A stretch of DNA of 35,009 nt from Streptacidiphilus melanogenes (GTDB taxonomy: Bacteria; Actinomycetota; Actinomycetes; Streptomycetales; Streptomycetaceae), in contig NZ_BBPP01000061.1 of NCBI RefSeq assembly GCF_000787835.1, positions 1 to 35,009 on the forward strand. Reading direction: 5' to 3'. Of the stretch, positions 16,870 to 34,228 are shown one piece after another. Position 1 is the first letter of the stretch, and each line of letters begins with the position of its first letter. The position numbers and the translations under genes were made by a program. The notes below the pieces were generated by a model that saw nothing but the letters and a program-made list of their open reading frames with translations, made no database searches and was not told where the DNA came from.

Positions 16870-19605
<2,736 letters not shown>

Positions 19606-19655
19606 GTGGGCTGGCTCCTTGCCTGGATGGACCGGGCGACTGTATCGGGCACCTT

Positions 19656-19696
19656 GCTCGCGGTGGTAACGAATAGGCCACCGCGAGCCCATCGTA
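19656..19696 (-). promoter_or_regulatory. secA promoter -10 and leader hairpin
   Basis: On the minus strand TACGAT (19691-19696) fits the -10 consensus. A perfect 11-bp inverted repeat (19656-19666 with 19678-19688, 11-nt loop) sits where transcription would start, about 50 bases before the GTG. It could cap and protect the 5' end of the message or act as an operator. No convincing -35 is seen. The remaining gap 19697-19810 shows nothing further, and no strong terminator for the hydrolase gene. Confidence 0.4.
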
Positions 19697-19810
19697 TGCG
19701 AGGAGCCCGTGCTGCCGGGAGGTCCGTCAGCACAGGGCATGGTGTCGTCCGCACGAGTGGCATTCTTTTTGCGTCGACAGCGGTCGAAATCGGACAGCGG
19801 AAATCCCGCC

Positions 19811-20659
19811 TCAGCAAGTCTGCCGCCATGCGTCCAGTTCCAGGTGCTTGCGGATCGCGCTGATTCCCAGGGGGCGCGTCTGCGCGCAGAACGCCGATGT
19901 CGGCACGGAGTACTCCGCGTCGAAGACGGGCTTGCCGGCCTTCACGAAAACGGTCAGCACCGCACACGCGCGCAGTTCGGCGCACTGCTCGTCCACCCCG
20001 TAGTCGAAGTCCGGCCGGAGTGCCGCAACCTGGTCGAAGTCGTTCTTCAACCCCACGGCCAGACCTCGCTCGTGGGCGAGCCGGGCGACCGCGCGGTCGA
20101 ACGCGAGCTGGTCGGCGGCAACAAGCGGAAAGCCGGTGTCGTTCTCGTAGCCGTCCATGTTGTCGGGCTCGACCCCGTCGAAGCCCTTGGCGCGGCACTC
20201 GTCGAGGCGGCGGGAGAGCAGCGGCGTCAGCAGGTCGAGCCGCCGGATGTCCAGCCACCGCTCGTCGGGCCAGCCGTCGAGGGGCTTGCCGAGCAACTCC
20301 TTCGGGTACTTTCCCGCGTCCGGCCGATACGGCTCCCAGCTCCCGGCGTTGACGTAGCAGACGACCCGTCGCCCGGCGCGGTGCAACGCGGCGACCACGG
20401 AGGCTGCGTTGTCGTCGGCGTCGATGTCGTAGACGTCGGCGCGGACGGAGGTGTCGACCGGCGCGGTGAGCTGCCACTGCCAGGTCAGCCCTGCCCGCGG
20501 CCGCCACCACGAGTCGGCGGAGGCGGCGGAGGCGGCGGAACCGGAGTCGGCGGAACGGGACGCGGCGGAGGCGTGCCGCGGCACCGGTCCGCCCGCGCAG
20601 GCGGTGAGCATCGCCCCGAGCAGCGCGGCCGTGATCATCAGGGCCCGCATTCTTTTCAT
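19811..20659 (-). CDS. GH114 endo-alpha-1,4-polygalactosaminidase-like lipoprotein
   Basis: A 282-residue exported protein. [15 protein letters not shown] and a lipobox LTAC (Cys21) predict lipid anchoring outside the cell, followed by a Ser/Ala-rich linker to about residue 50. The catalytic barrel begins with WQWQL (60-64) and VYDIDADD (77), continues with [16 protein letters not shown], and has the acidic cluster [16 protein letters not shown] (159-174), the hallmark of GH114 (Spherulin-4-like) glycosidases that cut alpha-1,4-linked galactosamine polymers. ATG 20659 was preferred (purine-rich AAAGAAAGAAG before it); ATG 20650 is an alternative. It is the last gene of a group with a PelF-like glycosyltransferase and a CE18-like deacetylase, so it probably trims or releases the polymer they make. 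Fungal Ega3 and the hydrolase part of PelA play comparable roles. Confidence 0.85.
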
Positions 20660-20679
20660 GTACTTCTTTCTTTTCGTCG

Positions 20680-20708
20680 TCACCGGTGCCGGGATCACCG
20701 GTGCCGGG
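20680..20708. repeat. short tandem repeat at a gene junction
   Basis: TCACCGGTGCCGGG occurs twice (20680-20693 and 20695-20708), the second copy covering the stop codon of the membrane-protein gene. Each copy contains the palindrome CACCGGTG. Probably a replication-slippage duplication that moved or reshaped the C-terminus and spacing; no function is evident. Confidence 0.5.
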
Positions 20709-22137
20709 TCGCGGTGGCGACGGCGAAGGCGGCGAGCGCGAAGAGTGCCGCCGCCGCGACGACGCCCACCCAGGCTTGTGCCGTTCCCGCGTCGACCTCC
20801 GCCAGCCGCGCCGCGACCAAGGCGAGCGCCGCCGCGCCCACCCCGAGCGCGGCCCGGCCGAGCAGCCCGAGGGACTGCAGCAGCTGCGCGCTCCAGATCG
20901 CCGCGGCCAGCGCCGTCAGGCTGCCCACGCCCGGCCCGGAGGCCCCCGGCCAGAACGCCTCGGCGAGCCAGGCGAGCCCGGCGACGAGCAGCAGGTAGCC
21001 ACCGAGGCAGCGCAGCAGCGCGCCGACGACCAGCCCGTGGAACTCCCGCGCGGCCGCCGCCCGCCCCAGCGCCAGCTCCATCGCCCCGCGGCAACGGGCC
21101 AGGAACCACTCCGCGCCGCCCATGCTGAGGGTGAGCGCCACCGTCGTCGGCCCGATGTCGGCCAGCGTCAGCACCGCCACCGCGAGACCGAACAACCCCG
21201 CCTGCCCCGCGTCCCGCCACGCGGGCCGCTCCCGGCGCCCGGCCGCGCCGGTCCACGGGTTCGCACGGCCCGTCTCCCGCCAGCCTGCCCGGACCGTCAG
21301 CAGCAGGGACAGCAGCACGAGGATGGGACCCACCGGCCCCGGCGGACCTGGCAGGCCGACCGGCCGGGCGAGAAGGAACCAGAGCGCGCCGCACGCGACC
21401 GGCGTGAGCGGGCCGACGAGCGCGCGTTCACGGCCGAGGACCAACAGCGCGGTCGCGGAGGCGAAGTACAGCCCCTGACCGAGGGCGTACCCGACCGCCG
21501 CCGGCGGCGACCCCGACAGCGCTGCGGCGACGGCGGCCACCGGGAGGCACAGGGCCACGCCCGCCACTCCACCACGGGCCAGACACTCCGCCGCGGCGAC
21601 CGGCTCTCCCCGGCCCAGCCGCACATAGCCGAGGTGGGCCACCGCCTGGCTCCAGCTCCAGCAGAACAGCAGCGCCGCCCCCGCGCACCACAACGAGCCG
21701 GGCGGCGGCCCGGCCAGCACGAACGCGAGGCCCGGCAGCGCGAAGAGGACACCCCGCAACGCGCTGCGCGACGCGGGCACGCCCCACGCGGACGCGCGGG
21801 CCGGGCGACGGGCCAGCCGCAGCTGCACCCGCTTGGGCACAGTGCCGCGCGCGGCACGCCCACCCTCCGGATGCGCCCGCCGGAACAGCTCCTCCCCCAA
21901 CTCGAAGGCGTCACGTCGACCGTAGCGCTGCTGTATCTGACCGTCGCTGAGCCCCTCCGCCTCCAGCGCCGCGACCAACTCCAACGCGTGCACGGCCCCC
22001 GCCGCGACCTCGGCGAAGCGCAGCGCTATCTCCTCGGCGGGATCCTCCGCGACCGCGGACCGCGCCGCCACGCGCGGCAGCGCCGCGGGCACGGGATCCA
22101 ACCGCAACCCCCGCACCAGCTCGACGAACCCGCTCAC
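20695..22137 (-). CDS. polytopic membrane protein in the PelG position
   Basis: A 480-residue integral membrane protein. The first roughly 130 residues are soluble and helical, with LSDGQIQQRYGRRDAFELGE near 65-85 and then a basic stretch (PKRVQLRLARRPARAS). About 10-12 hydrophobic helices follow, from ALRGVLFALPGLAFVLAG (about 147) to the C-terminus; the seventh or so carries TLADIGPTTVALTL. The GTG start (22137) overlaps the glycosyltransferase stop by four bases (GTGA), so the two are translationally coupled. In Pel systems the PelF glycosyltransferase works with the membrane protein PelG, which is thought to export the polymer. Position and topology suggest the same job here, but I do not recognise PelG sequence motifs, and the soluble N-terminal domain differs from what I know of PelG. 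Confidence 0.6.
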   Translation of the reverse strand: MSGFVELVRGLRLDPVPAALPRVAARSAVAEDPAEEIALRFAEVAAGAVHALELVAALEAEGLSDGQIQQRYGRRDAFELGEELFRRAHPEGGRAARGTVPKRVQLRLARRPARASAWGVPASRSALRGVLFALPGLAFVLAGPPPGSLWCAGAALLFCWSWSQAVAHLGYVRLGRGEPVAAAECLARGGVAGVALCLPVAAVAAALSGSPPAAVGYALGQGLYFASATALLVLGRERALVGPLTPVACGALWFLLARPVGLPGPPGPVGPILVLLSLLLTVRAGWRETGRANPWTGAAGRRERPAWRDAGQAGLFGLAVAVLTLADIGPTTVALTLSMGGAEWFLARCRGAMELALGRAAAAREFHGLVVGALLRCLGGYLLLVAGLAWLAEAFWPGASGPGVGSLTALAAAIWSAQLLQSLGLLGRAALGVGAAALALVAARLAEVDAGTAQAWVGVVAAAALFALAAFAVATATRHR

Positions 22138-23822
22138 GCAGCGACCTCGTCGTCCGCGGACTGCGCCGGTCCGTCTCCCGGCAGCCCGGGCGGGCCGCCG
22201 GGGCCGGGCCCGGGGACCGGTGCCGCGTCACGCTGCCGTGGCATGCGGGCGGGCACGGACAGCGGGGCTGCGCCCGCGGCCCCGACGGGCACAGGAACAG
22301 GTAGATGCACAGGCACAGGCCGACCGAGCGGCACACCGCCCGTGCCGGTCGGGGCCTGTCCGAAGCCCGCCACCCCCCGCTGCGCCGCCGACGCACCCTC
22401 CTGCGTCAACTCCCCGTACAGGGCCCGGTACTCGGCCACCGTGCGCTCCACGGTGAACCGTTCCGTCACCCGTCGCCGCGCCGCCGCGCCCAGGCGGGCG
22501 CGCCGGCCGGGATCGCGGAGCAGGGCGAGCGTCGCGGCGGCGAGAGCCTCGGGCTCGCGGGCGGGGACGACCAGGCCCGTGTCGCCGACCGCCTCCCGAA
22601 CTCCGCCGACGTCGGTGGAGACCGTCGCCCGGCCGCAGGCCATCGCCTCGATCAGGCTGAACGGGAAGCCCTCGGAGATGCTCGAGAGCAGGACCACCGA
22701 GCCCGCAGCGTAGGCGTTCCTGACCGCGTCGATGCGGCCCTCGAAGGCCACGCCCTCGCTGACCCCGAGCTCCGCCGCGAGAGCGTCGAGCCGCGCGCGG
22801 TACGCCTCTCCCCCGGCCGGCACACCGCCGAACAGGCGCAGCCGCACCCGCGGCAGCTCGGCGCGGACCAGCGCGAAGGCACGCAGCAGCGTCTCCAGAT
22901 CCTTGATCGGGTCGATCCGCCCGGCCCAACTGAGCGTCAGTTCCTCGGGTTCGGGGCCGGCCACGGGGAACTGCCCAAGGTCCACGCCGTTGTAGACGGT
23001 GCGGATGCGCTGCGGGTCGCAGCCGCCGTGCTCCTCCCAGCGGCGGTTATACCGGTTGCACGGCGCGACGACGTCGGCGCAGCGGTAGCTCTCCGTGGCG
23101 AGCATCCGGTAGAAGCCGAGCAGCAGCGTCTTCACCGGGCGGCAGAACGGCGGGTTCCGAAAGCCGAGGAAGCGCTCGCGCAGATAGATGCCGTGCTCGG
23201 AGAGAAGCAGCGGCACGCCGTGGAAGCGCCGGGCGGCCAACGCCGGCAAGGCGGCGAGCCCGCCTGTGGCGACGTGGGCGACGCCGCGCGCGGGTGGCTG
23301 GACCGCGAGGGGGCGCAGCGCATGCTCCAGCAGGTCGGTGCCCTCCAGCGCGTCGCGCAGGCTGGGCCGGTCCCGGCTGGTGGGCAGGAACGGCAGCCGC
23401 CACACGCCCTGGAGCGAGCGCAGCGCGCCCTCGGTGCGCAGCGCGGCGGTCAACGAACCGCCGGTCAGCGCGAGTTCGGACAGCTGATAGAGCTCGTCGG
23501 CGAAGTGGTGCTCGAAGTCCGGGTCGAGCAGCGAGAGCAGGAAGCGCTCGTAACCGGCGAGGAAGCGCCGCAGCGCCCTCCCGCGTGGGGCGCGGCCCTG
23601 CGGCGTCGGACCCCACAACGGCACGGTGCTCACCGAGGCGACCTGCCTCGGCAGCGGCCAGACGACCGGCTCCGCACCGGAACCGGTGATCCCCAGGACG
23701 TGGAAGCGGACGTCGGGCATCCCGTGGACCAACTGGTCGCACCAGGTGCTGACACCGCCATGGATGTACGGATAAGTGCCCTCCGTCAGCAGGGTGACCT
23801 CAAGCGGTCCCGGGCTGTTCAT
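22134..23822 (-). CDS. PelF-like GT4 family glycosyltransferase
   Basis: A 562-residue cytoplasmic glycosyltransferase of the GT-B fold. The N-terminal LLTEGTYPYIHGGVSTWCDQ (11-30) is the signature of PelF proteins (DUF3492 region). LLLSEHGIYLRERFLGF (205-221) and YNGVDLGQFP are also typical. The donor-binding half has LSWAGRIDPIKDLETLL (298-314) and the EX7E motif SEGFPFSLIEAMA (Glu384, Glu392). PelF uses UDP-GalNAc/GlcNAc-type donors to polymerise the Pel chain, and fungal Gtb3 is comparable. Residues 480-562 form a Pro/Gly/Ala-rich, probably disordered tail that is unusual for the family. The ATG at 23822 follows GAGGGGG by about ten bases. The gene is coupled by GTGA overlap to the membrane-protein gene and lies 150 bp after the deacetylase gene. 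Confidence 0.85.
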   Translation of the reverse strand: MNSPGPLEVTLLTEGTYPYIHGGVSTWCDQLVHGMPDVRFHVLGITGSGAEPVVWPLPRQVASVSTVPLWGPTPQGRAPRGRALRRFLAGYERFLLSLLDPDFEHHFADELYQLSELALTGGSLTAALRTEGALRSLQGVWRLPFLPTSRDRPSLRDALEGTDLLEHALRPLAVQPPARGVAHVATGGLAALPALAARRFHGVPLLLSEHGIYLRERFLGFRNPPFCRPVKTLLLGFYRMLATESYRCADVVAPCNRYNRRWEEHGGCDPQRIRTVYNGVDLGQFPVAGPEPEELTLSWAGRIDPIKDLETLLRAFALVRAELPRVRLRLFGGVPAGGEAYRARLDALAAELGVSEGVAFEGRIDAVRNAYAAGSVVLLSSISEGFPFSLIEAMACGRATVSTDVGGVREAVGDTGLVVPAREPEALAAATLALLRDPGRRARLGAAARRRVTERFTVERTVAEYRALYGELTQEGASAAQRGVAGFGQAPTGTGGVPLGRPVPVHLPVPVPVGAAGAAPLSVPARMPRQRDAAPVPGPGPGGPPGLPGDGPAQSADDEVAA

Positions 23823-23855
23823 ACGGGCTCGGCCCCCTCGGGCGTTCGCGGCGGA

Positions 23856-23888
23856 CCAGGGCCCGGGGCGTTGCGTCCCGGGCCCTGG
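23856..23888 (-). terminator. hairpin between deacetylase and glycosyltransferase genes
   Basis: A perfect 12-bp inverted repeat, CCAGGGCCCGGG with its complement (23856-23867 and 23877-23888), loop of nine bases, no U-run. It stands in the only sizeable gap of the exopolysaccharide gene group. It could end the deacetylase message or be a partial terminator setting the ratio of the two products. Confidence 0.6.
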
Positions 23889-23972
23889 CTCTGCCGTATG
23901 TGTGGCTGGTGAAGAAGGTGGTGCTCGACGGCTGTGTCCGTCCGTTCCTTGCCGTGCCTGCGGTGCCTGCGG

Positions 23973-26189
23973 CTACTCGCGCGCCTGCGGCAGGAGAGCC
24001 ACGCCGGCCGGGGTGAACGGCACCTGGAGAGCCACCGAGGCGGGCTGCGCCGGCTCGGTCTGCGCCGGTGCGACCGTCGTGGCCGTGGCGGACTTCGTGC
24101 TCGGCGCGGCGGGCGCAGCGGGCGTGCCGGCGGAGTTCAGTGTCAGGGTGACCGCGCTCTGCAACAGCTTGGGCGTCAGCCAGCCGGAGAGCTCGCCCGC
24201 GTACGCGGTGCCCGCCGCCGTCGAGCCGAGGCCGAGCAGGCCCGGCTGGACCGTCCCGTTCGGCATGGTCACCGGGACCTGCACCCCCGACGGGGCCTGC
24301 ACGGTGACGGTGCCGCCCACGCGGTAGGCCGTGACCTTGCCCGCGGAAACCGCCGACTGCCAGGCCGAGCGCTGCTGCAGCTCGGCGCCGATCGCGGACT
24401 CGCGCAGGTTGACGATCGGGGCGTTGCCCGCCATCAGCTGGCCGTAGGTGGCGAACAGGGTGTCCAGCACCGGGTAGAGGATGCGGTCCTCGGCGAGGTT
24501 GGACTGGTGGGCGTAGTGCGGGTCGGGGTTGTCGCCGAGGATGTGCCCCATGTCGATCCGGGCCTCCAACGGCACGATGTAGCTGCTGTAGCCCGTCGAC
24601 TCGTCCAGCGGGGCGGGCAGGCAGGTGGTCGTCGCCGGGTTGGCGGTGCAGGTGCCGCTGCCGCCCTGGGCGGTGGAGGTGTAGAGCCAGTTGTACTCGT
24701 CCACCTCGTCGGCGACCTTGCCGGCGTTGTAGTAGACGTTCATCGGGAAGCGCGGCACGGTGAGGGCGTTGCCGACGGCCCGCTGGTCGGGCTCGCGGGA
24801 GTGGTCACTGCCTGTCCACTTCACGCCCTCGGCGTTCAGCGCCGGGGCGAGGCCGGGGTTGTCGACAGGCTGCTGCGGCAGCGTCTTCAGGCCCGAGTGC
24901 TCCCCGGTGACCAGCTCGGTCCGGTCGATGGAGAGCCCGTGCTGGGCGGCCCAGGCGACGTTCTGGCTGATCGCGTTATCGATGGTCTGCTGGTCGACCC
25001 AGGAGACGTTGCCCTTCGCGTCCGTGGTGCAGGACCACGGGACCGTCGTGGTGTTCTGCACGCAGCCCAGGAACGGGTGGTCGTAGGTGTGGTTCACCCA
25101 GCGGAACGAGGACTTGTTCTGCAGCAGCGCGTCCGTGAGCGGGTCGTCGACCTTGCCGTTCTGGGTCGCGTCGTCGCTGCCGCCCCCGTTGAAGAGGAAG
25201 TCGAAGGTGAAGTTGTGCGCCTGCTCCCACTGCACGGCGTAGCCGACGTCGGCCGGGGTCATCCGGATCTCGGAGGCCGCCGGAGTGCCCTGGCAGGCGG
25301 AGGCAGCGTCGCCGGGAGTGCACTTGGCCGTGGAGCTCCACCGGTCGTCCGGCAGCAGGACGTCGTCGACGTGCATCGAGAAGTAGTTGCGGTCGAAGCC
25401 GAGGTGGATGCCCTGGGTCATCCAGTCGACGATGCCGCGGGCCAGCAGCCGGTACTGCTGCTGGTACTGGTTGTAGTCGAAGGTGAGCACCAGCTCGGAG
25501 ACGCCGCTGTGGTCGTACTCCCCGGCCAGCACGCCCTGGGCGCCGCTGCCGCCCGGGATCGGCATGGTGACCAGCGGCGTGAACGACGCCCCGGCCGCCT
25601 GCGTGGCCAGCGGCGTGGCCAGATAGCCGTAGCTTTCCGTCACGTTCGGGTCGTTGTCCTCGAAGGGGACGCCGCCCTTCAGGTAGTCGAAGGCGCCACC
25701 GAGCCCGGCACCGGTGACGGTGCCCTGCATGCCGTCGAGCGCCCCGATGTAACCGGGGTTCGCGGCCCAGTTGAGGCCGACGGCCGGCTGGGCGTAGGTG
25801 TACGCGTCGACCTGGCGCACGCCGAACTGGGCCTCGTAGCTCTGCAGTGCGGCCATCTCGGCCGAACCGGCGGGGAAAGGCGCGTTGTTGGGCAGCACGA
25901 CGGCCTGGTACCGCGCCTCCGCCCGGCCGGAGCCGTCGGTGCCGCTGAGGAACGCGGCGTTGATCACCGGGCGGCTCGCGTCGCCCAGGCTCACCCGCGT
26001 GTAGGGCGTGCCGGTGAGATCGAGCTCGTTGACGATCGCGGCCACGGACGGGCCTCCGTCATCGACCACGAGCACCTTGAGGTCGATCCGCTGCGTGCCG
26101 CTCGCGGCCTGCGCCCCGGCCACAGGCGTCATGCACGCCAGCAGCCCCGCCGCGACGAACGCGGCGGCCCATCGGGTCCTGCGACCCAT
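23973..26189 (-). CDS. secreted CE18/Agd3-like polysaccharide deacetylase
   Basis: A 738-residue exported protein. The signal peptide is MGRRTRWAAAFVAAGLLACM with likely cleavage after AGAQA; the LLAC could instead serve as a lipobox. Residues 34-260 form an all-round beta/alpha N-terminal domain with LKVLVVDDGG. The catalytic part has NodB-type metal-site motifs: FSMHVDDVLL (His273, Asp275, Asp276), WVNHTYDHPF (HTxxH, His367 and His371), GEHSG (429-433) and PRFPMNVYYN (Arg480). These fit deacetylases of the Agd3/PelA C-terminal kind, which remove acetyl groups from GalNAc polymers outside the cell. A Thr/Ala/Pro linker and short C-terminal tail follow (about 690-738) without an anchor. The ATG at 26189 has GGGAGGGG six bases upstream. 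It heads the exopolysaccharide gene group. Confidence 0.8.
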   Translation of the reverse strand: MGRRTRWAAAFVAAGLLACMTPVAGAQAASGTQRIDLKVLVVDDGGPSVAAIVNELDLTGTPYTRVSLGDASRPVINAAFLSGTDGSGRAEARYQAVVLPNNAPFPAGSAEMAALQSYEAQFGVRQVDAYTYAQPAVGLNWAANPGYIGALDGMQGTVTGAGLGGAFDYLKGGVPFEDNDPNVTESYGYLATPLATQAAGASFTPLVTMPIPGGSGAQGVLAGEYDHSGVSELVLTFDYNQYQQQYRLLARGIVDWMTQGIHLGFDRNYFSMHVDDVLLPDDRWSSTAKCTPGDAASACQGTPAASEIRMTPADVGYAVQWEQAHNFTFDFLFNGGGSDDATQNGKVDDPLTDALLQNKSSFRWVNHTYDHPFLGCVQNTTTVPWSCTTDAKGNVSWVDQQTIDNAISQNVAWAAQHGLSIDRTELVTGEHSGLKTLPQQPVDNPGLAPALNAEGVKWTGSDHSREPDQRAVGNALTVPRFPMNVYYNAGKVADEVDEYNWLYTSTAQGGSGTCTANPATTTCLPAPLDESTGYSSYIVPLEARIDMGHILGDNPDPHYAHQSNLAEDRILYPVLDTLFATYGQLMAGNAPIVNLRESAIGAELQQRSAWQSAVSAGKVTAYRVGGTVTVQAPSGVQVPVTMPNGTVQPGLLGLGSTAAGTAYAGELSGWLTPKLLQSAVTLTLNSAGTPAAPAAPSTKSATATTVAPAQTEPAQPASVALQVPFTPAGVALLPQARE

Positions 26190-26394
26190 GTCGTCCCCTC
26201 CCGGGCGCGCGCAGGAGTGACCGCGCACGCCGAAGCATCAGAGAAAGTGATCAGAAGAAATGCGGAATCCCCGTAAGCCCCCACAGGCAGCTCGATCCGC
26301 TGCGTGAACAGGCTAGGAGCGGGGTCCGGCAGGAACGGTCCCGATCCGTTTTCTCCACCCCTGGGCGTGAGATTCGGGACGAGAGTTTGATTCG

Positions 26395-26414
26395 GCTCAC
26401 CCGATCCGGTGAGC
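26395..26414. promoter_or_regulatory. palindrome in the divergent promoter region
   Basis: GCTCACC (26395-26401), six bases, then GGTGAGC (26408-26414) form a perfect 7+6+7 inverted repeat. It overlaps the predicted -35 of the YcaQ-like gene and lies about 205 bp upstream of the deacetylase start, so a regulator bound here could affect both. Elsewhere in the 26190-26445 gap a minus-strand TAGCCT at about 26303 is a possible -10 for the deacetylase gene, without a clear -35. Confidence 0.4.
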
Positions 26415-26438
26415 GCTGTCAGTGGGCCCGCCTAGGCT
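26409..26438 (+). promoter_or_regulatory. leaderless promoter of the YcaQ-like gene
   Basis: GTGAGC (26409-26414), 18 bp, TAGGCT (26433-26438), then seven bases to the ATG at 26446. This is the normal distance between -10 and transcription start, so the message should begin at the start codon. No ribosome binding site is visible, in agreement. Confidence 0.55.
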
Positions 26439-26445
26439 GCGGGTC

Positions 26446-27630
26446 ATGGCGACACCTCTCGAGCTCTCCAGTGACCAGGCCCGCCGGATCGCTCTGCGCG
26501 CCCAGGGCTTCCTCGGTGCGCCGGACCGCCGCGGCGGCGTGCGGGCGATGCTGCGCCGGCTCGGCTCGGTGCAGCTGGACACCATCTCGGTGCTGGCCCG
26601 CTCGCACGAGCTGATCCCGTACGCCCGGCTCGGCGCGGTCGGGCGGGAGGCGGTCGAGGCGGCGTACTGGAGCGGCAACCGCTCGTTCGAGTACTGGTCC
26701 CATGCCGCCTGCGTGCTGCCGGTCGAGGAGTGGCCGCTCTTCGCCTTCCGGCGCCGCGCCTTCCAACGGCGCGGCCACCGCTGGCACCGCATGGAGGACG
26801 CCGAGCGCTCCTGCGCCGAGATCGTGGCCAAGCTGCGCGGCGAGGGGCCGCTCACCACCAAGGAGTTGGGCGGCGCCAAGCGGGGCGGCGAGTGGTGGGA
26901 CTGGTCCGAGTCCAAGATCGCCGTCGAGTGGCTGCTCGACACCGGCGTCGTGGTCTGCACGGAGCGCCGCGGCTGGCGACGCGTCTACGCGCTGGCCGAG
27001 CAGGCCGTCCCGGCCGAGCTGCTGGAGGCGGAGCCGGAGGACGAGGCCTGCCTGCGGCAGCTGGTGTTCCAGTCGGGCCAGGCCCTCGGGGTCGCCACCG
27101 AGAAGGATTTGGCCGACTACCACCGGCTCCGGGTGGAGCAGGTCACCGCCGCGTTGCCGGGCTCGGGTCTGGTGCCGGTCCGCGTCGCCGGTTGGGAGCG
27201 CAACGGCTCAGCCGGACAGCCGGCGCGGGCCTGGGCGGATCCGGCCGCCCTCGTCGCGGAGCCGCGCGGGCGCCACCGCACCACGCTGCTCTCCCCGTTC
27301 GACTCGTTGATCTGGGACCGCGCCCGCACCGAGCGGATCTTCGGCTTCACCCACCGGTTGGAGGCCTACACCCCCAAGCACAAGCGCGTGCACGGGTACT
27401 TCACGATGCCGCTGCTCGTAGGCGGCCGCCTGGTCGGCCGGGTCGATCCGGCGCGCGAGGGCACCACGCTGGTGGCCCGTCAGGCCTCGCTCACCTCGCC
27501 GAGCGCTCTCCCGGCGCTCGCCGACGCGCTGCGCGAGGCGGCGCAGTGGGTCGGCTGCTCGTCCGTGCGCGTCGAGCAGCTCCACGACGAGACGCTGCGC
27601 ATCCCGCTGGAGAAGCTGCTGGCCGCCTGA
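26446..27630 (+). CDS. YcaQ/AlkX-like winged-helix DNA glycosylase
   Basis: A 394-residue cytoplasmic protein of the HTH_42/YcaQ family: tandem winged helices that bind damaged DNA. The catalytic-type motif is SVQLDTISVLARSHELIPYARLG, in which Gln43-Leu44-Asp45 matches the Q-phi-D of E. coli YcaQ (AlkX), an enzyme that unhooks interstrand crosslinks; relatives such as AlkZ protect producers of genotoxic natural products. The middle has KRGGEWWDWSESKIAVEWLL, and the C-terminal part has LLSPFDSLIWDRARTERIF and YTPKHKRVHGYFTMPLLV, standard for the family. The ATG at 26446 lies seven bases after a TAGGCT box. It converges on the response-regulator gene with a ten-base gap. Many members are annotated only as winged-helix proteins, so glycosylase activity is inferred from the motif. 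Confidence 0.85.
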   Translation: MATPLELSSDQARRIALRAQGFLGAPDRRGGVRAMLRRLGSVQLDTISVLARSHELIPYARLGAVGREAVEAAYWSGNRSFEYWSHAACVLPVEEWPLFAFRRRAFQRRGHRWHRMEDAERSCAEIVAKLRGEGPLTTKELGGAKRGGEWWDWSESKIAVEWLLDTGVVVCTERRGWRRVYALAEQAVPAELLEAEPEDEACLRQLVFQSGQALGVATEKDLADYHRLRVEQVTAALPGSGLVPVRVAGWERNGSAGQPARAWADPAALVAEPRGRHRTTLLSPFDSLIWDRARTERIFGFTHRLEAYTPKHKRVHGYFTMPLLVGGRLVGRVDPAREGTTLVARQASLTSPSALPALADALREAAQWVGCSSVRVEQLHDETLRIPLEKLLAA

Positions 27631-27644
27631 GCCCGGCGGGTCAG
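27627..27644. terminator. small hairpin spanning convergent stop codons
   Basis: CTGA-G-CCC / GGG-TCAG forms a 7-bp stem with one bulge and a three-base loop, including both stop codons. It is weak, and is the only candidate terminator between the YcaQ-like gene and the response-regulator gene. Confidence 0.25.
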
Positions 27645-28309
27645 CCTATTTCGAGGATCTTCTCCCGCATCGCGTAGACCACGGCCTCCATCCGGGAGTG
27701 GAGCTGCAGCTTCTCCAGGATGTTGCGGACGTGGTTCTTCACGGTGTTCTCGCTGATGAAGAGCTGCTTCGCGATGTCCCGGTTGTTGAGCCCGGTGGCC
27801 ACCAGCTTGAGCACCTCCATCTCACGGTCCGTCAACCGCGGCGCGGGCAGCAGCTCCTGCTGGTCGGTCCGTTTCTGGATCATCGACTTGAACTCCGTGA
27901 GCAGCTTGGCCGCCATGGAGGGGCTGATCTGCGACTGGCCGTCCGCCACCGCGCGGATCGCCGTGGCCACCTCGTCCGTGGAGATCTCCTTGAGCAGGTA
28001 GCCGGTGGCCCCCGCCTTGATCGCCTCGTAGAGGTCGGCCTCCTCGTCGCTGATGGTCAGCATGATGATCTTCGTGCTGGGTGCGACCTCCTTGATGGCC
28101 GTGCACGCCTCGATACCGCCGCGGCGCGGCATCCGCACGTCCATGAGGATGATGTCGGGCAGCAGATCCGCCGCCTTCTCCACCGCCTCGGCCCCGTCCC
28201 CGGCCTCGCCGACGACGGCGATGTCCTCCTCCTGGGCCAGGACGATCTCCAGACCGCGCCGGAACAACGCGTGGTCGTCCACGACCAGTACCCGGATCGG
28301 CTCCACCAT
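27641..28309 (-). CDS. NarL/FixJ-family response regulator (orphan)
   Basis: A 222-residue DNA-binding regulator. The receiver domain has VLVVDDH, the phosphoacceptor Asp57 in DIILMDVRMP, the conserved Thr in IIMLTISD and the Lys of GYLLKEIS. A linker leads to the LuxR-type helix-turn-helix DREMEVLKLVATGLNNRDIA, continuing to ENTVKNHVRNILEKLQL (about 158-205). The ATG at 28309 has GGGAGGG six bases upstream. No histidine kinase gene adjoins it, so its partner, if any, is elsewhere. It follows the hpf gene in the same direction but is separated by a strong hairpin, so it is likely transcribed on its own. Targets are unknown. Confidence 0.92.
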   Translation of the reverse strand: MVEPIRVLVVDDHALFRRGLEIVLAQEEDIAVVGEAGDGAEAVEKAADLLPDIILMDVRMPRRGGIEACTAIKEVAPSTKIIMLTISDEEADLYEAIKAGATGYLLKEISTDEVATAIRAVADGQSQISPSMAAKLLTEFKSMIQKRTDQQELLPAPRLTDREMEVLKLVATGLNNRDIAKQLFISENTVKNHVRNILEKLQLHSRMEAVVYAMREKILEIG

Positions 28310-28385
28310 CCGGTCCCTCCCCCTCCGTGGGCGGCTTTCAGCGACATGATTCCACGCTTCGTGGTGATCGCTATCACGCGCCCGA

Positions 28386-28422
28386 AGAGGGTTCCCCCGG
28401 AAGTGTGCCGGAGGAACCCTCT
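28386..28422 (-). terminator. terminator after hpf
   Basis: Arms 28386-28400 and 28408-28422 pair over 10 bp, one C/A mismatch and 4 bp, with a seven-base loop. It stands 51 bases beyond the hpf stop and upstream of the response-regulator gene. Confidence 0.85.
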
Positions 28423-28473
28423 GTCATTCAGTGTCGCCCGTCTACCTGTGGTGCTTCGCCGTCAGGCGGGCCG

Positions 28474-29097
28474 TCACTCCTCGACCTTCAGGTGGATCAC
28501 ACCGTAGTCGTAAGCGTGGCGCCGGTAGACCACGCTCGGCTGGAGTGTGTCGGAGTCCACGAACAGGTAGAAGTCGTGGCCGACCAGCTCCATCTCGTAC
28601 AGCGCCTGGTCCAGCGCCATCGGTGCGGCGGGGTGGGTCTTCTCGCGGACCACCAGCGGCCCGTCACCCTCCACCGCCACGGACCCCTGCATCGTCCTCT
28701 TGGGCGGGCTCAGCTCCTCGGGCGTCGCCTGCCCCGGCGTGTCCGACAGCGCGGCGGTCGCCTGGGCGACGCTCATCGGCGCCCGGGGCCCCTTGCTGAT
28801 CCGCCGTCGGTCCGCTGCCTTGCGCAACTGCGCGTCCAACTTCGCGGACGCGAGGTCGAGCGCGGAGTACGGGTCGGAGGAGCTCGCCTCCGCCCTGATC
28901 ACCGGGCCACGGCTGCGGAGCGTGATCTCCACCTGGTCGGCGTGGTCGGACTGGCGCGGGTTGTGTTCCTTCGAGAGCTCCACGTCGACGCTGATCACCT
29001 TGCCGTCGAGCTTGTTGATCCGCTCGAGCTTCTCGGCGACGTGCCTGCGGAACCGCTCCGGAACCTCGGTCTTGCGACCCTTGACGACGATGTCCAC
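28474..29097 (-). CDS. hpf: long-form ribosome hibernation promoting factor
   Basis: A 207-residue ribosome-associated protein that pairs 70S ribosomes into inactive 100S dimers under stress or starvation. Residues 1-95 are the HPF/YfiA domain (VDIVVKGRKTEVPERF, VEITLRSRGPVIRAEA). A variable linker of about 55 residues follows. The C-terminal dimerisation domain has MALDQALYEMELVGHDFYLF and SVVYRRHAYDYGVIHL. The start taken is the GTG at 29097, with GGATCGGAG six bases upstream and the usual family beginning. An ATG at 29124 would add nine residues and lies against a 7-bp hairpin (29129-29146). It is divergent from comF across a long gap. Confidence 0.93.
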   Translation of the reverse strand: MDIVVKGRKTEVPERFRRHVAEKLERINKLDGKVISVDVELSKEHNPRQSDHADQVEITLRSRGPVIRAEASSSDPYSALDLASAKLDAQLRKAADRRRISKGPRAPMSVAQATAALSDTPGQATPEELSPPKRTMQGSVAVEGDGPLVVREKTHPAAPMALDQALYEMELVGHDFYLFVDSDTLQPSVVYRRHAYDYGVIHLKVEE

Positions 29098-29485
29098 GCA
29101 GAACTCCGATCCTTCGCGCTTCATGCCCGCGGACCCATAGGTCCGCAGGGCCCGTCGAGTACGCAGCCCCACCCGCTCGGGGGGTCGGGCGGAACCGCCC
29201 CTCTGTCCCCTTCATCCCCAGTCGGAACGGTGGGAACCCCATGGAACAACGGTTCCCTGAAATTCGCCTGTCCGACACGGGACTGAAGTCCCCGAGTCAG
29301 GGAGCCATACGTCCTGCCGTCCAAATTCGCCGCGCGCGGGGTCCTTGTACAGCCCCCGCGCGGTGGCTGCCCCCGTTCGGATGAACATCACGTGAATGGC
29401 CCTCGTCATCGGGGTGGTCGGGGCACTCTTGGCACTCCTTCCGTGTGTATCTCCGACCGTATCTCTGATCGCGTGGGGAGGCTCC
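29098..29485. other. divergent intergenic region between hpf and comF
   Basis: 388 bases without a convincing gene. Visible are a 7-bp hairpin just upstream of hpf (29129-29135 with 29140-29146), an inverted repeat GGGAACC/GGTTCCC around 29230-29255, and an imperfect GC-rich inverted repeat around 29330-29363 with a two-base offset between the arms. The promoters of both genes must lie here, but I could not assign -35/-10 pairs with confidence. Confidence 0.5.
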
Positions 29486-30190
29486 GTGGAACGGTCACCG
29501 ATTCGCACTCTCGACGCCGTGCTGGACCTGCTGCTGCCCACCGTCTGCGTCGGCTGCGGCAGCCCGCACGCGCAGCTCTGCGCGCCCTGCCGCGTCCAGC
29601 TGGAACAGCCCGACCCGAGCCGTGCCAGGCCCGGCCACCCGCCGCCCGGCCTGCCCGAGGTCTATGCGGCACTGCCCTACGGCGGAGCCGTCAGACAAGC
29701 GCTGCTGGCCCACAAGGAGCGCGGTGCGATGCGGCTCGCCGCGCCGCTGGGCCGCGCACTCGCGCAGGCCGTGCACATGGCGGTCCCACTCGAGCCCGCG
29801 CCCCATCGCCGCGACGCGCGCCCCCTGCTCCTGGTGCCGATGCCGTCCACGCCGCGAGCGACCCGGGCCCGCGGGCACGATCCGACGACCCGCCTCGCCC
29901 GCGCCGCCACGGCGTCGCTGCGGTCGCGCGGCCTTCCCGCCCGCGTGGTGCCCGCGCTGCGCCACGCCCGCGCCGTCGCCGACCAGGCCGGCCTGGACGC
30001 CCCCGCCCGCCGCCGCAACCTCGCCGGCGCGCTCCGCGTCACCCGCGGCGCCGACGACCTCCTCCACACCGGCCATGTCGTGGTCGTCGACGACCTCGTC
30101 ACGACCGGCGCAAGCCTCGCCGAAGCCGCCCGCGCTCTCGCCGACGCCGGCATCGACGTCCTCGCGGCCGCCGTCGTCGCCGCGGCCTGA
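29486..30190 (+). CDS. comF: ComF family phosphoribosyltransferase-like protein
   Basis: A 234-residue protein with an N-terminal zinc-finger-like pair of cysteines (Cys21, Cys24, Cys32, Cys35 in CVGCG...CAPC), the middle LLLVPMPSTPRATRARGHDP typical of ComF, and a PRPP-binding-type loop VVVVDDLVTTGA (198-209). ComF proteins take part in DNA uptake in competent bacteria. In actinobacteria their role is unclear, and the gene is simply conserved beside lpqB. The GTG at 29486 was chosen because GGGGAGG lies four or five bases before it; an upstream ATG at 29396 would add a hydrophobic stretch not expected in this family. It converges on lpqB with a 34-base gap in which I see no strong hairpin. 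Confidence 0.9.
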   Translation: MERSPIRTLDAVLDLLLPTVCVGCGSPHAQLCAPCRVQLEQPDPSRARPGHPPPGLPEVYAALPYGGAVRQALLAHKERGAMRLAAPLGRALAQAVHMAVPLEPAPHRRDARPLLLVPMPSTPRATRARGHDPTTRLARAATASLRSRGLPARVVPALRHARAVADQAGLDAPARRRNLAGALRVTRGADDLLHTGHVVVVDDLVTTGASLAEAARALADAGIDVLAAAVVAAA

Positions 30191-30224
30191 CCCGCCCCGG
30201 GATCGGCCGGTACGGATCCGACCG

Positions 30225-32087
30225 TCAGCCGGGGAAGCGCACGCCGCTGCCCTTGCTCGACGCGGAGTCGGTGATCGGGAGCCAGCGGAACGCCGTCAGC
30301 TGGGAGAAGAAGATCTCGTTCTCCTCGTCGGGGTTCTTCGCCGTGGCGAAGAGCCACAGCGGCAGCGACGGGTCACTCGGCAGAGTCGTCACATCGGTCA
30401 CGCCGCTCAGGGTCTGGATCGTGCCGAGCGAGGACGGGCTGCCGTCCATCTCGACGGGGATGACGCTGGTGGTTCCCGACTGCTGGCCCACGACCACCAG
30501 GCCGTCGCCGTCCTGCCAGGACAGCGAGGAGATCGAGGTGATGTTCGCAGCCGTCGGCCGCAGCTCCTCCACGCTCAGCGAAGGCACCTGGTGCGTGGAG
30601 TCGTCCGCCGCGAGGTGCCGCACCCGGCCGATCTCGACCGTCGTGTTGTCCCCGCTCTTCACCAGCAGCGCGATCCGCGCACCGTCGGGCGCCACACGGA
30701 CCTGCTGGATCGTCGCCCCGTCCGGCAGACCCTGCACCTCGACGGGCACGGACACGCCGTTCACCACCGCCCGCAGCGTCGTCCCACCGGGCTCGGTGTC
30801 GACCGCCCACAGCGTGCCGGCGCCGTCCCAGCTGGGCGAGGAGAGCGCGCCCGGCGTCCCGCCGCGCAGCACCGCCGTCGTGGGCGCCGTGGCGGCCCGC
30901 AGGGTGCTCACGTACAGCGCACGACCGTCGTCGGAGATCGAGGCCACCTGGTCCTCCCCGTTCGGGGAGACGGCGAAGGAGCCGATCGTGGTCCCCACCG
31001 GGACCAGCTTCCCCGGCACGTCCTCCACCGTGGCCGGGCTGGAGCCCGGCTGCGGGGTGACGCTCATCAGATGGTGGTCCGCGCTGAGGAAGTACGCCGT
31101 CGCACCCACCCGCACTGGGTTGTACCCGCCCTCCGACTGGGTCGTGCAGATCGGCGCGCCGCCCTTGTCACGGTAGAGCGCCACCGAGGTCGGCGGGGTG
31201 GGCTCCACGTTCGTGGTGCCCTCGGCGAACGTGGCATACAGCTGCGCCGCCATCGTCTGGCAGGTGGTCGGGCTCCAGTCCGCGTCCGCCCCCAGTGACA
31301 GGTAGACCTTGGCCTGGGGGCTGCTGGTGTCCAGTACGACCTTGGAATTCGACGAGTTCGCCGGGAAACCGGTGGTGACCACCGGCGCCAGCCAGGTGCT
31401 CGGCCCGTCGATCAGCTGCTGCGCCGCCAGCTGCAGCGGGTTGTCGACGCGGCCACGGATGTAGACCGGGTCGGCAACGAGCGGGCTCACGCCCTTGCTG
31501 GTGTGGCCGGCCGCCGCTGGGAAGTACAGGTTGACCGACTGGTATATCCGCTGGAAGTCACGCTGGCTGGTCAGCACCGTCGTCGGCGGGTCGACGATCC
31601 GCCACTGGCCCTTGTCGTTCAGCTCGAAGTGGTAGTCGACACTCACCGACTGCGTGCCGGGGGTCGCGGGCGTGTACGAGCCGTGCGAATCCAGCGAGGC
31701 GATCTCGGTGCCGGTGGCTGTGACCGTGGCGCTCTTCCGATCGGGACTCTCCGTCATCCGCAGGTCCGGGGTCGTGCTCAACACGTCCACGGCGCCCGAG
31801 GGCTGCCAGTTCGGGTCGCTGAGGTAGAGCCGGGCCGTCCGGTAGTCCGACTGGTCGCTGCCCAGCGCGTCCAGGAAGCCGTAGAGAAGCTGCTCCGGGC
31901 GCTCCTGATCGGCCGGCGGCACGGGAATCAGCTCCACGCGGGTGTTCTGCGTGTTGCCCGACGCGGTCGGCCCGAGCGTCACCGGGCCGTTGCTGGGCAT
32001 CGTGGCGCAGCCGGCCAGGCCGAGCAGGGTGCCCGACAGCGCCACAACGCGGACCGCACGGAACCGCGACGGCTCAGACCTCTTCAC
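30225..32087 (-). CDS. lpqB: lipoprotein LpqB, MtrAB-associated
   Basis: A 620-residue lipoprotein with lipobox LLGLAGC (Cys27). The mature part has a GerMN-type domain (VPPADQERPEQLLYGFLDAL then TARLYLSD, with a second LYLSLGADADW-like stretch near residue 260) and then a beta-propeller-like region of repeated short strands to the C-terminus. LpqB binds the external domain of MtrB in mycobacteria and tunes its signalling; the same is likely here. The GTG at 32087 lies inside the end of mtrB (14-base overlap) with AGGGA about six bases before it, so translation is coupled. It is the third gene of the mtrA-mtrB-lpqB operon. Confidence 0.93.
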   Translation of the reverse strand: MKRSEPSRFRAVRVVALSGTLLGLAGCATMPSNGPVTLGPTASGNTQNTRVELIPVPPADQERPEQLLYGFLDALGSDQSDYRTARLYLSDPNWQPSGAVDVLSTTPDLRMTESPDRKSATVTATGTEIASLDSHGSYTPATPGTQSVSVDYHFELNDKGQWRIVDPPTTVLTSQRDFQRIYQSVNLYFPAAAGHTSKGVSPLVADPVYIRGRVDNPLQLAAQQLIDGPSTWLAPVVTTGFPANSSNSKVVLDTSSPQAKVYLSLGADADWSPTTCQTMAAQLYATFAEGTTNVEPTPPTSVALYRDKGGAPICTTQSEGGYNPVRVGATAYFLSADHHLMSVTPQPGSSPATVEDVPGKLVPVGTTIGSFAVSPNGEDQVASISDDGRALYVSTLRAATAPTTAVLRGGTPGALSSPSWDGAGTLWAVDTEPGGTTLRAVVNGVSVPVEVQGLPDGATIQQVRVAPDGARIALLVKSGDNTTVEIGRVRHLAADDSTHQVPSLSVEELRPTAANITSISSLSWQDGDGLVVVGQQSGTTSVIPVEMDGSPSSLGTIQTLSGVTDVTTLPSDPSLPLWLFATAKNPDEENEIFFSQLTAFRWLPITDSASSKGSGVRFPG

Positions 32088-34227
32088 GCGTTCCCTCTCC
32101 CTCGTGCGCCCCGTCCGCTTCCAGCGACTCCCGGCTCTCCCGCGGCCCCCGAAGCTGCCGCGACTCGTCCGCCCGGGGATCGTCCGCACGTGTCGTCACC
32201 GTGCCGGGAACGACGACCTGCGCGCCGCCCGGGGCGAAGCCGGCCCCGAGACCGGAGACCGTGCCCAGATCGGAGGGGTTGCTGGCGGGCGTGGCCCGCG
32301 TCGGACCGGGCAGAGCCGGGATGACCGAACCGTAGCCGAGCACGCCGCCGAGACCGGGACCCAGGCTCGGCTGCGCCGGGCTCTGCTCCAGCTCACCCGT
32401 GGCCGGAAGGGCCGTCGCCCCGGCCGGCCGGGGTCGGCGGTAGGGGCTGCCGGAGATGTCCAGACCCAGGTTGCCGCGCGAGTCCTCAGGCTCCAGCGGG
32501 ATCGGAGACCGGGCGATCTCCGTGCCGGCGCTGCGCGGAATCGTCAGGCGGAACTGCGAACCACCGCCCGGCTCACCCCAGGCGTGCAGCCAGCCCCCGT
32601 GCAGGGCGGCGTCCTCCAGGGCGATCGACAGGCCGAGGCCGGTCCCTCCCGTCGTACGGGCGCGGGCCGGGTCGGCACGCCAGAAGCGGTTGAAGACGCG
32701 GGCGGCCTCGCCGGGCTTGAGCCCGATGCCGTGGTCACGCACCGCGACCGCCACCGCGCCGTCCCGGGTGGCCATGTGGACCTCGATGTCCCGGCCCTCG
32801 CCGTGCTCCAGCGCGTTGACGACCAGATTGCGCAGGATGCGCTCGATACGCCGGGGATCGCACTCGGCCACGACCGGCTCGTCGCCGCCGACGATCCGCA
32901 CCGCGCTGCCCTTGCGCTCGGCCAACGGACCGGCACCGTCGATCACACGGCCGACGACCTCGCGCAGGTCCGTGGGCTCAGAGTCGAGGATCGCGGCCCC
33001 GGCGTCGAAGCGGCTGATCTCCAACAGATCAGCCAGCAGCGACTCGAATCGGTCCAGCTGGTTCTGCAGCAGTTCGGCGGAGCGCACCGCCATCGGGTCG
33101 TCGAAGTCCTCGCGGGCCTCGTAGAGCAGGTCGGCGGCCATGCGGACCGTCGTCAGCGGCGTGCGCAGCTCGTGCGAGACGTCCGAGACGAAACGGCGCT
33201 GAACCCGGGAGAGCTCCTCCAGCTGCCGGATCTGCGCCTGCAGCGCGCCTGCCATGCGGTTGAACGATTCGCCGAGGCGGGTGATGTCGTCCGTGCCGGA
33301 GACCTTCATCCGCTCCTCGAGCCGGCCCGAGGCCAGCTGCTCGGAGATCTCCGCCGCCATCCGCAGCGGTGTCACCACCTGGCGCACCACCAACCAGGAG
33401 ATCGCGCCGAGCAGGATCACCACGAAGACCCCGGCGGTCGCCAGCGTCCCGGTCACCAGGTTCAGCGTGCTGGTCTCCTGGGTGAACGGGAAGACGTAGT
33501 AGAGCTGGTACGAGCCGTTGACGGCGGCAGCGCCACTCTGGCCGCTCGCGTCGTTCGGCAGCGATATCTGCTCGCCGATGACCATGCCCGGCTGGCTCTG
33601 GGCCCCGTTGGAGAACGTGACGGTGGTGTACGCGCCCTCCGGGCTGCCCGGGTTCCCGGCCACCCGCTGCTGCAGGTCCGCCGGGATCGTCGCCGTGGGA
33701 TCCACGCCGCCGGTCAGGTACATGGCCCGGGACGTCGCGTTCGACGAGTCGCCGCTCGTCGGCAGCCCGACCACGTAGTAGGACCCCGCGCCGCTCGAAG
33801 CCAGCGTCCCGACCTGCTCGTTCATGACCGCACCGACGTCCGGCTGCGACTGCGCGTCCGCACCGACACCGGTCTGCGAGGTCGCGCTGCCGCCGCCCGT
33901 CTTGTGGGCGTATCCGCTGAGGTTGCTCGCGGCGGTCCTGGCGGCCGCGAAGCCGCTCTCGGCCTGCGTCTGCGCCGACTGCGTCTTGGTCTGGAGCAGA
34001 CCGTTGCGGACCTGGTTCATCACGACGACGCCCAGGAGCAGCACCACGCCGAGCGAGAGCACGAGCGTCATCGCCACGACGCGCAGCTGGATGGAGCGCC
34101 GGTACAACCCGACGGCACGCCGGGCCGGCCTCCGCAGCTGCCGCCACAGGGCGCTGAACAGAGACTGCTGGGTGGTAGACCGCCCGCCGTCCGTATGGGG
34201 CAGGGCGGCGGGGGCCTGACCGCTCAT
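32074..34227 (-). CDS. mtrB: sensor histidine kinase MtrB
   Basis: A 717-residue membrane kinase. Helix 1 (about 49-70) and helix 2 (about 257-283) flank an external sensor domain of about 185 residues. A HAMP linker follows, then the H-box FVSDVSHELRTPLTT (His352), N-box LRNLVVNALEHGEG (Asn467, Asn471), G1 VRDHGIGL, F-box VFNRFWRAD and G2 GGTGLGLSI. From about residue 575 to 717 there is a Pro/Gly/Ser-rich tail of uncertain role beyond the kinase domain. It senses envelope conditions and phosphorylates MtrA. The ATG at 34227 follows the mtrA stop by a single base, so the genes are tightly coupled. Confidence 0.96.
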   Translation of the reverse strand: MSGQAPAALPHTDGGRSTTQQSLFSALWRQLRRPARRAVGLYRRSIQLRVVAMTLVLSLGVVLLLGVVVMNQVRNGLLQTKTQSAQTQAESGFAAARTAASNLSGYAHKTGGGSATSQTGVGADAQSQPDVGAVMNEQVGTLASSGAGSYYVVGLPTSGDSSNATSRAMYLTGGVDPTATIPADLQQRVAGNPGSPEGAYTTVTFSNGAQSQPGMVIGEQISLPNDASGQSGAAAVNGSYQLYYVFPFTQETSTLNLVTGTLATAGVFVVILLGAISWLVVRQVVTPLRMAAEISEQLASGRLEERMKVSGTDDITRLGESFNRMAGALQAQIRQLEELSRVQRRFVSDVSHELRTPLTTVRMAADLLYEAREDFDDPMAVRSAELLQNQLDRFESLLADLLEISRFDAGAAILDSEPTDLREVVGRVIDGAGPLAERKGSAVRIVGGDEPVVAECDPRRIERILRNLVVNALEHGEGRDIEVHMATRDGAVAVAVRDHGIGLKPGEAARVFNRFWRADPARARTTGGTGLGLSIALEDAALHGGWLHAWGEPGGGSQFRLTIPRSAGTEIARSPIPLEPEDSRGNLGLDISGSPYRRPRPAGATALPATGELEQSPAQPSLGPGLGGVLGYGSVIPALPGPTRATPASNPSDLGTVSGLGAGFAPGGAQVVVPGTVTTRADDPRADESRQLRGPRESRESLEADGAHEGEGTREEV

Positions 34228-34228
34228 C

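What the first reader, a model, noticed from the sequence alone, without database searches (positions are those of the whole stretch)
19811..26189. A compact Pel/galactosaminogalactan-like exopolysaccharide locus in an actinomycete
Four consecutive minus-strand genes encode a secreted CE18/Agd3-like deacetylase (HVDD and HTYDH metal motifs), a PelF-like GT4 enzyme (N-terminal TEGTYPYIHGGVS, EX7E), a polytopic membrane protein coupled to it by a GTGA overlap, and a lipoprotein GH114 hydrolase (GFDGVEPDN). The same set (GT4, membrane exporter, deacetylase, alpha-1,4-galactosaminidase) makes Pel in bacteria and galactosaminogalactan in Aspergillus. Inference: this locus makes a partly deacetylated, cationic GalNAc-type polymer that could mediate adhesion or biofilm and pellet formation. 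It differs from classical Pel: PelA is split into two separate genes, and there is no c-di-GMP receptor PelD, PelE or outer-membrane part. It may be a minimal single-membrane version, and its gene content is closer to the fungal cluster.
Basis: partly seen in the sequence, partly recalled or inferred. Interest (0 to 1): 0.85.

Follow-up and report, generated by a model that had tools for sequence, protein, structure and literature searches.

The report
Pared-down actinomycete galactosamine-polymer operon
A soil actinomycete carries a four-gene locus that most likely makes, exports, partly deacetylates and trims a sticky, positively charged galactosamine polymer like the biofilm sugars of some fungi and bacteria; this type of locus was already described in outline, but its likely exporter belongs to an unnamed protein family different from the usual one.

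Summary
In detail: four minus-strand genes encode an Agd3-like (CE18) deacetylase, a PelF-type GT4, a polytopic membrane protein (GTGA overlap) and a GH114 lipoprotein. A partly deacetylated alpha-1,4-GalNAc-type polymer is the best explanation, but the chemistry is inferred. Two corrections. (1) It is not Pel with PelA split in two: the enzymes are CE18 and GH114, as in the fungal galactosaminogalactan cluster, and the membrane protein is not detectably PelG. It has a predicted 12-helix MOP/MATE fold and belongs to an unnamed family with its own N-terminal helical domain, also seen beside PelF on Kocuria, Deinococcus and Thermus plasmids. In a 22-row tree, PelFs beside this family and PelFs beside PelG lie on opposite sides of a 100/100 branch. 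(2) It looks reduced, not primitive: 42 of 80 related named loci have eight genes (two epimerase-type genes, a nucleotidyltransferase and a spherulin-4 gene more), with candidates for all five fungal functions. Operons of this kind in Actinobacteria were reported in 2020 (PMC7229062). Verdict: new variant of a known kind; the distinct exporter and its possible PelF-docking domain are the fresh points.

The parts
23973..26189 (-). Secreted CE18/CBM87 Agd3-like de-N-acetylase (738 aa); D275/D276, H367/H371, H561 are the CM1, CM2 and CM4 counterparts
23855..23889 (-). 13-bp hairpin in the 150-nt gap between deacetylase and PelF; no T-run; possible attenuator (role not tested; stem identical in 2 of 4 relatives aligned, altered in one, not seen in one)
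   Evidence: (z -2.74)
22134..23822 (-). PelF-type GT4 glycosyltransferase (562 aa, DUF3492 domain; EX7E at E384/E392)
22134..22137 (-). GTGA stop/start overlap of pelF and the membrane gene; a possible NTGA overlap exists in 63 of 82 related loci that had both genes
20695..22137 (-). Membrane protein (480 aa): 12 predicted transmembrane helices with MOP/MATE fold; probable polymer exporter or flippase
21808..22050 (-). N-terminal helical domain of the membrane protein (about residues 30-110), the shared signature of this family; proposed PelF-docking module (inference)
19811..20659 (-). GH114 endo-alpha-1,4-galactosaminidase-like lipoprotein (282 aa; LTAC lipobox; D166 and E224 match the Ega3 catalytic pair by spacing and alignment)

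Best explanation
The locus makes and matures a partly deacetylated alpha-1,4-linked GalNAc/GalN (Pel- or galactosaminogalactan-like) surface polymer. Proposed steps: the cytoplasmic PelF-type GT4 polymerises UDP-GalNAc (epimerase supplied from elsewhere in the genome); the translationally coupled 12-helix MOP-fold protein exports the chain across the single membrane, with its N-terminal helical domain holding PelF in place of the PelD/PelE scaffold; the secreted CE18-like enzyme removes acetyl groups, making the polymer cationic so that it sticks to the anionic cell surface; the GH114 lipoprotein cuts deacetylated stretches, setting chain length or release. Shown here: gene identities, predicted folds, conserved catalytic residues, conserved gene order, no detectable PelG. 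Inferred: substrate, direction of transport, docking, biological role.
For: GT4 scores above NCBIfam's PelF equivalog cut-off. The deacetylase model has the Agd3 architecture; of the 62 alignment members scanned, the window's included, 44 reach Agd3_CE and 32 CBM87_Agd3 at E <= 1; of four plasmid relatives scanned, the Deinococcus and Thermus ones pass the Agd3_CE cut-off and the Kocuria and S. californicus ones do not. GH114 matches Ega3 with both catalytic residues. The membrane protein is MOP-fold, the superfamily to which PelG is assigned (PMC13254593 passages; folds). Conserved order CE18-PelF-MEM(-SDR-NTase-SDR-spherulin4)-GH114; the five fungal functions are listed in PMC11356417 passages. 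PelF acting on UDP-GalNAc and export by PelG in B. cereus: PMC13254593 passages.
Confidence: 0.75

Rival explanations
1. Canonical Gram-positive Pel operon (pelDEADAFG) that has lost pelD and pelE; the membrane protein is a diverged PelG.
For: PelF equivalog hit; 12-helix MOP fold as described for PelG (PMC13254593 passages).
Against: Profile-profile comparison with an alignment of six PelGs gives probability 0.2 %, and with a seventh 0.05 %, the level of an unrelated MFS control at 0.07 %, while an alignment of six Deinococcus, Thermus and Kocuria proteins gives E 3.1e-38. PF16933 is not found in the genome; in the class it reaches E 0.001 in 10 and its cut-off in 4 of 296 genomes, as partial matches, though it finds true PelGs at 420-498 bits. 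The PelF tree separates the groups at 100/100.
Confidence: 0.1
2. The product is a wall-anchored or lipid-carried galactosamine glycopolymer (secondary cell-wall polymer), flipped as a lipid-linked intermediate in the way of Wzx or MurJ, and the two secreted enzymes tailor the wall.
For: Fold relation also to the lipid-linked flippases WzxE and MurJ; low levels of galactosamine polysaccharide in Streptomyces walls are mentioned in PMC7229062 passages.
Against: No initiating phosphoglycosyltransferase, polymerase or ligase was seen among the genes read in the locus or its eight-gene relatives; PelF-type polymerases are not known to need a lipid carrier (recalled).
Confidence: 0.15
3. A scavenging or attack locus: the CE18-like enzyme and GH114 degrade foreign galactosaminogalactan of fungi, and the GT4 and membrane protein are bystanders.
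For: GH114 genes of a second, lower-scoring class (about 168-193 bits in the listed rows) exist in many Streptomycetaceae.
Against: The GT4-membrane pair is usually coupled (possible NTGA overlap in 63 of 82 loci) and co-occurs with the deacetylase (78 and 77 of 80 loci); no uptake transporter in the locus.
Confidence: 0.05

Closest known systems
Agd3-homologue (CE18) bacterial exopolysaccharide operons of PMC7229062 (Bamford et al. 2020)
   Same: Agd3-like deacetylase, cytoplasmic GT, multi-spanning membrane protein and GH114 together, in Actinobacteria among others; spherulin-4 in some
   Different: The window lacks spherulin-4 and sugar-nucleotide genes at the locus; section 13 of that paper names no fold or family for the membrane protein, which is proposed here
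Fungal galactosaminogalactan cluster (uge3, gtb3, agd3, ega3, sph3)
   Same: Counterparts of gtb3 (GT part), agd3 and ega3 in the window; epimerase-type and spherulin-4 (sph3-type) genes in the eight-gene relatives
   Different: GT and membrane part are separate genes here (Gtb3 is called a putative transmembrane glycosyltransferase, PMC4817252 passages); no epimerase in the window locus; homology to Gtb3 not tested
Gram-positive pelDEADAFG (Bacillus cereus type)
   Same: PelF-type GT4, MOP-fold exporter, extracellular three-domain deacetylase
   Different: No PelD or PelE in the locus; exporter not detectably PelG; deacetylase Agd3-like, whereas PelADA is said to fall outside the CE families that existed before that paper (PMC13254593 passages)
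Streptomyces MatAB (PNAG) and CslA/GlxA pellet polysaccharides
   Same: Possible role in adhesion and pellet formation
   Different: Other synthases and sugars (PMC5972031 passages)

Membership tests
CE18-GH114 bacterial exopolysaccharide operon (PMC7229062) | Agd3-like deacetylase with CBM87, CE18 and C-terminal beta domains | tested here: met
CE18-GH114 bacterial exopolysaccharide operon (PMC7229062) | Cytoplasmic glycosyltransferase in the operon | tested here: met
   GT4/PelF 22134-23822
CE18-GH114 bacterial exopolysaccharide operon (PMC7229062) | Multi-spanning alpha-helical membrane protein | tested here: met
   12 long helices in the model, MOP fold
CE18-GH114 bacterial exopolysaccharide operon (PMC7229062) | GH114 gene in or next to the operon | tested here: met
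   266.8 bits
CE18 deacetylase | CM1 (DD), CM2 (HxxxH), CM4 (catalytic His) | tested here: met
   D275/D276, H367/H371, H561, placed by motif through the Thermus-Agd3 alignment; invariant in 62 of 62
CE18 deacetylase | CM3 arginine | tested here: inconclusive
   R465, R470 and R480 are invariant candidates; no residue-level structural alignment
CE18 deacetylase | Pfam Agd3_CE gathering score | tested here: not met
   17.8 against 27.6 bits; so filed as Agd3-like by fold, not as a Pfam member
GH114 | Domain and catalytic Asp/Glu pair | tested here: met
Pel operon | PelF | tested here: met
   163.4 bits, cut-off 100
Pel operon | PelG | tested here: not met
   positive control
Pel operon | PelD and PelE | tested here: inconclusive
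   No unassigned gene in the locus; 0 of 80 related loci by single-sequence tblastn, a weak test; rest of the genome not searched
Fungal-type galactosaminogalactan cluster | Epimerase and sph3-type (spherulin-4) gene in the cluster | tested here: not met
   No such gene between membrane gene and GH114; in G000 the one spherulin-4 match lies on contig C75 and the best epimerase relative on C94
MOP superfamily exporter | 12-helix MATE-like fold | tested here: met
MOP superfamily exporter | Polysaccharide transport | not testable with these tools
   needs an assay

The most novel reading that the evidence does not exclude
Two classes of Pel-type polymerase exist. One uses PelF with PelG and a PelD/PelE c-di-GMP scaffold. 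The other, described here, uses PelF with a MOP exporter whose built-in N-terminal domain docks PelF, needing no PelD or PelE, and it moves as a cassette on plasmids between Actinomycetota and Deinococcota. A PelF-exporter fusion of this kind (as in P0220) could be the ancestor of the fungal transmembrane galactosaminogalactan synthase.
Probability: 0.3. Interest if true: 0.75.

Novelty: new variant of a known kind. Interest (0 to 1): 0.5.

Why it matters
Filamentous actinomycetes are industrially important and their pellets limit fermentation; the pellet polymers met in the papers looked at here are PNAG and a CslA-made polymer. A third, cationic galactosamine polymer, whose exporter gene is found in 80 of 150 and deacetylase in 50 of 101 Streptomycetaceae genomes sampled, would be a new handle on adhesion and pellet shape. 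The unnamed exporter family with a possible PelF-docking domain would show how a Pel-type synthase can work without a c-di-GMP scaffold, and the eight-gene bacterial versions make the proposed bacterial origin of the fungal cluster testable.

Tried and rejected
PelG identity for the membrane protein: rejected (PF16933 does find true PelGs). Sequence search of the solved structures with the deacetylase and with its alignment A2 gave no Agd3 hit, nor did the Kocuria relative; only the Thermus relative did, so the assignment rests on fold. A BldD-like motif (pattern recalled) is at chance level. Promoter and terminator scans found nothing. Burkholderia stagnalis plasmids carry two CE18 relatives; no PelF, membrane-gene, GH114, spherulin-4 or PelG relative was found within 9 kb of them at E 1e-3 (L145, L146), so they do not extend the locus. 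A regex lipobox count on GH114 (32 of 54) misses obvious lipoboxes and was not used. The 80 loci are the best 80 of 514 relatives, so the tally is biased to close relatives; several are cut by contig ends (63 of 80 are at least 20 kb). The overlap count takes the start codon nearest the PelF stop, so it counts possible overlaps. Searches for print on a Streptomyces Pel or PelF function (13 of 13 listed, 15 of 1,736 listed, 15 of 31 listed) showed none beyond PMC7229062 and PMC12054363 in the listings; open-licence papers only. The PelF tree has no Firmicutes row, two long branches and six rows of odd composition. ORF lists come from a crude GC-frame rule and contain spurious frames; presence and absence were therefore checked by tblastn.

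Full report
What is there. The window lies in a Streptacidiphilus-like genome: the tool groups G000 with 13 others in one genus, and the best named protein and locus relatives are Streptacidiphilus. Four minus-strand genes lie between secA (16870-19740) and a plus-strand AlkZ-like gene (26422-27630): deacetylase 23973-26189, GT4 22134-23822, membrane protein 20695-22137, GH114 19811-20659. The GT4 stop and the membrane start overlap as GTGA; the membrane-GH114 gap is 35 nt; the deacetylase-GT4 gap is 150 nt and holds a strong hairpin without T-run. No room is left for a PelD or PelE gene.

Glycosyltransferase. NCBIfam PelF equivalog 163.4 bits (cut-off 100) and DUF3492 174.3 bits; EX7E at E384/E392.

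Hydrolase. GH114 266.8 bits, Ega3 E 6.4e-55. D166 and E224 sit where Ega3 has an Asp and a Glu 58 residues apart, the spacing of its Asp189/Glu247 pair (pair from PMC12054363 passages). LTAC lipobox.

Two PelF classes. In a 22-row tree, 7 PelFs followed by PelG separate at 100/100 from 15 PelFs followed by, or fused to, the new family. Three of the 15 belong to a second type: P0220 fuses the GT4 to the N-terminal domain and membrane helices, and in L135, L136 and also L137 the GT4 is followed by a stretch with that domain, then an epimerase-type gene and a spherulin-4 gene. These three nest within the other twelve, so the new-family PelFs are a group only with them. This is the ground for the docking idea, which remains inference.

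Distribution and reduction. Among 150 Streptomycetaceae genomes, PelF is over its cut-off in 89, the membrane protein is found in 80, and GH114 of any class in 122; the deacetylase is found in 50 of 101. In 80 named loci (best 80 of 514), 42 have CE18-PelF-MEM-SDR-NTase-SDR-spherulin4-GH114 in that order and 15 more the same without a GH114 match in the held DNA; PelF is in 78, MEM in 77, spherulin-4 in 65, the SDR/NTase trio in 61, GH114 in 54. In the genus of the window, 13 of 14 genomes leave at most about 1 kb between the membrane and GH114 matches, too little for the trio; in G066 they fall on two contigs. 7 of 14 have spherulin-4 at the locus; the other 7, G000 included, have their one spherulin-4 match elsewhere, and in 6 of these 7 the membrane and GH114 matches lie within 500 bp. 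In 4 of 14 no deacetylase match lies at the locus, where PelF stands next to the AlkZ-like gene; they carry a weaker relative elsewhere, 1,214-1,259 aa in the three genomes read. The best epimerase relative in G000 is 35 % identical, a generic level. So the four-gene form is best read as pared down, with sugar-nucleotide supply left to genes elsewhere; the direction of change is inferred from the tally, not from a reconstruction.

Mobility. Plasmid records of Streptomyces californicus (4), Deinococcus (4), Thermus (2) and Kocuria rosea (1) carry the deacetylase, besides 2 of Burkholderia stagnalis. I read 7 of the first 11 regions; all 7 have PelF followed directly by a member of the membrane family (relation). 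A GH114 is annotated in the region in 5 of 7; in D. grandis a GH114-like gene scores just under the cut-off (24.7 against 27). The Kocuria copy is flanked by two transposase genes with the same protein accession.

Known or not. PMC7229062 section 13 (read whole) already reports bacterial Agd3 operons, all with a GT and a multi-spanning membrane protein, GH114 highly consistent, spherulin-4 in some Actinobacteria; its discussion (passages) links them with the fungal cluster. PMC7112168 and PMC7112194 (passages) report pel operons in actinobacteria, with PelD. PMC11356417 and PMC4817252 (passages) give the five fungal functions. PMC13254593 (passages) gives PelF, PelG and PelADA roles in B. cereus. 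Not seen in those texts or in the listings: the MOP fold and non-PelG identity of this exporter, its shared N-terminal domain, the two PelF classes, and the reduced forms in Streptacidiphilus.

Judgement.

Noticed in passing
L135:5586-10243; L136:7032-12337; L137:5823-10222; P0220: A second Streptomyces locus pairs a DUF3492 GT4 with a stretch bearing the same N-terminal domain, then an epimerase-type gene and spherulin-4; in L136 and L137 no CE18 or GH114 match lies within the 18 kb read.
   Followed up: partly
L121:3514-12582: Kocuria rosea plasmid carries the five-gene version between two transposase genes with one protein accession, so the cassette may be mobile.
   Followed up: no
L142:6860-10639; L143:6032-9676; L144:5180-8845: CE18/CBM87-like proteins of 1,214-1,259 aa (Pfam run only on the L142 one: Ig domains, Agd3 models just under cut-off) in genomes of the window's genus that lack the deacetylase at the locus.
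   Followed up: partly
G000:C75, L132:7125-7733: Spherulin-4 gene beside a pyruvate kinase gene in the window's own genome; 48.6% identical to the one at the locus in G019.
   Followed up: partly
window 23855-23889: Strong 13-bp hairpin without T-run between deacetylase and pelF, identical in the two closest relatives aligned and not kept in the most distant of the four.
   Followed up: partly
window 16870-34257: Neighbourhood: secA, AlkZ-like glycosylase, LuxR-type response regulator, S30AE ribosomal protein, LpqB and a histidine kinase; the operon sits between secA and the AlkZ-like gene in 6 of the 7 named Streptacidiphilus loci (the seventh, L030, is cut short).
   Followed up: partly
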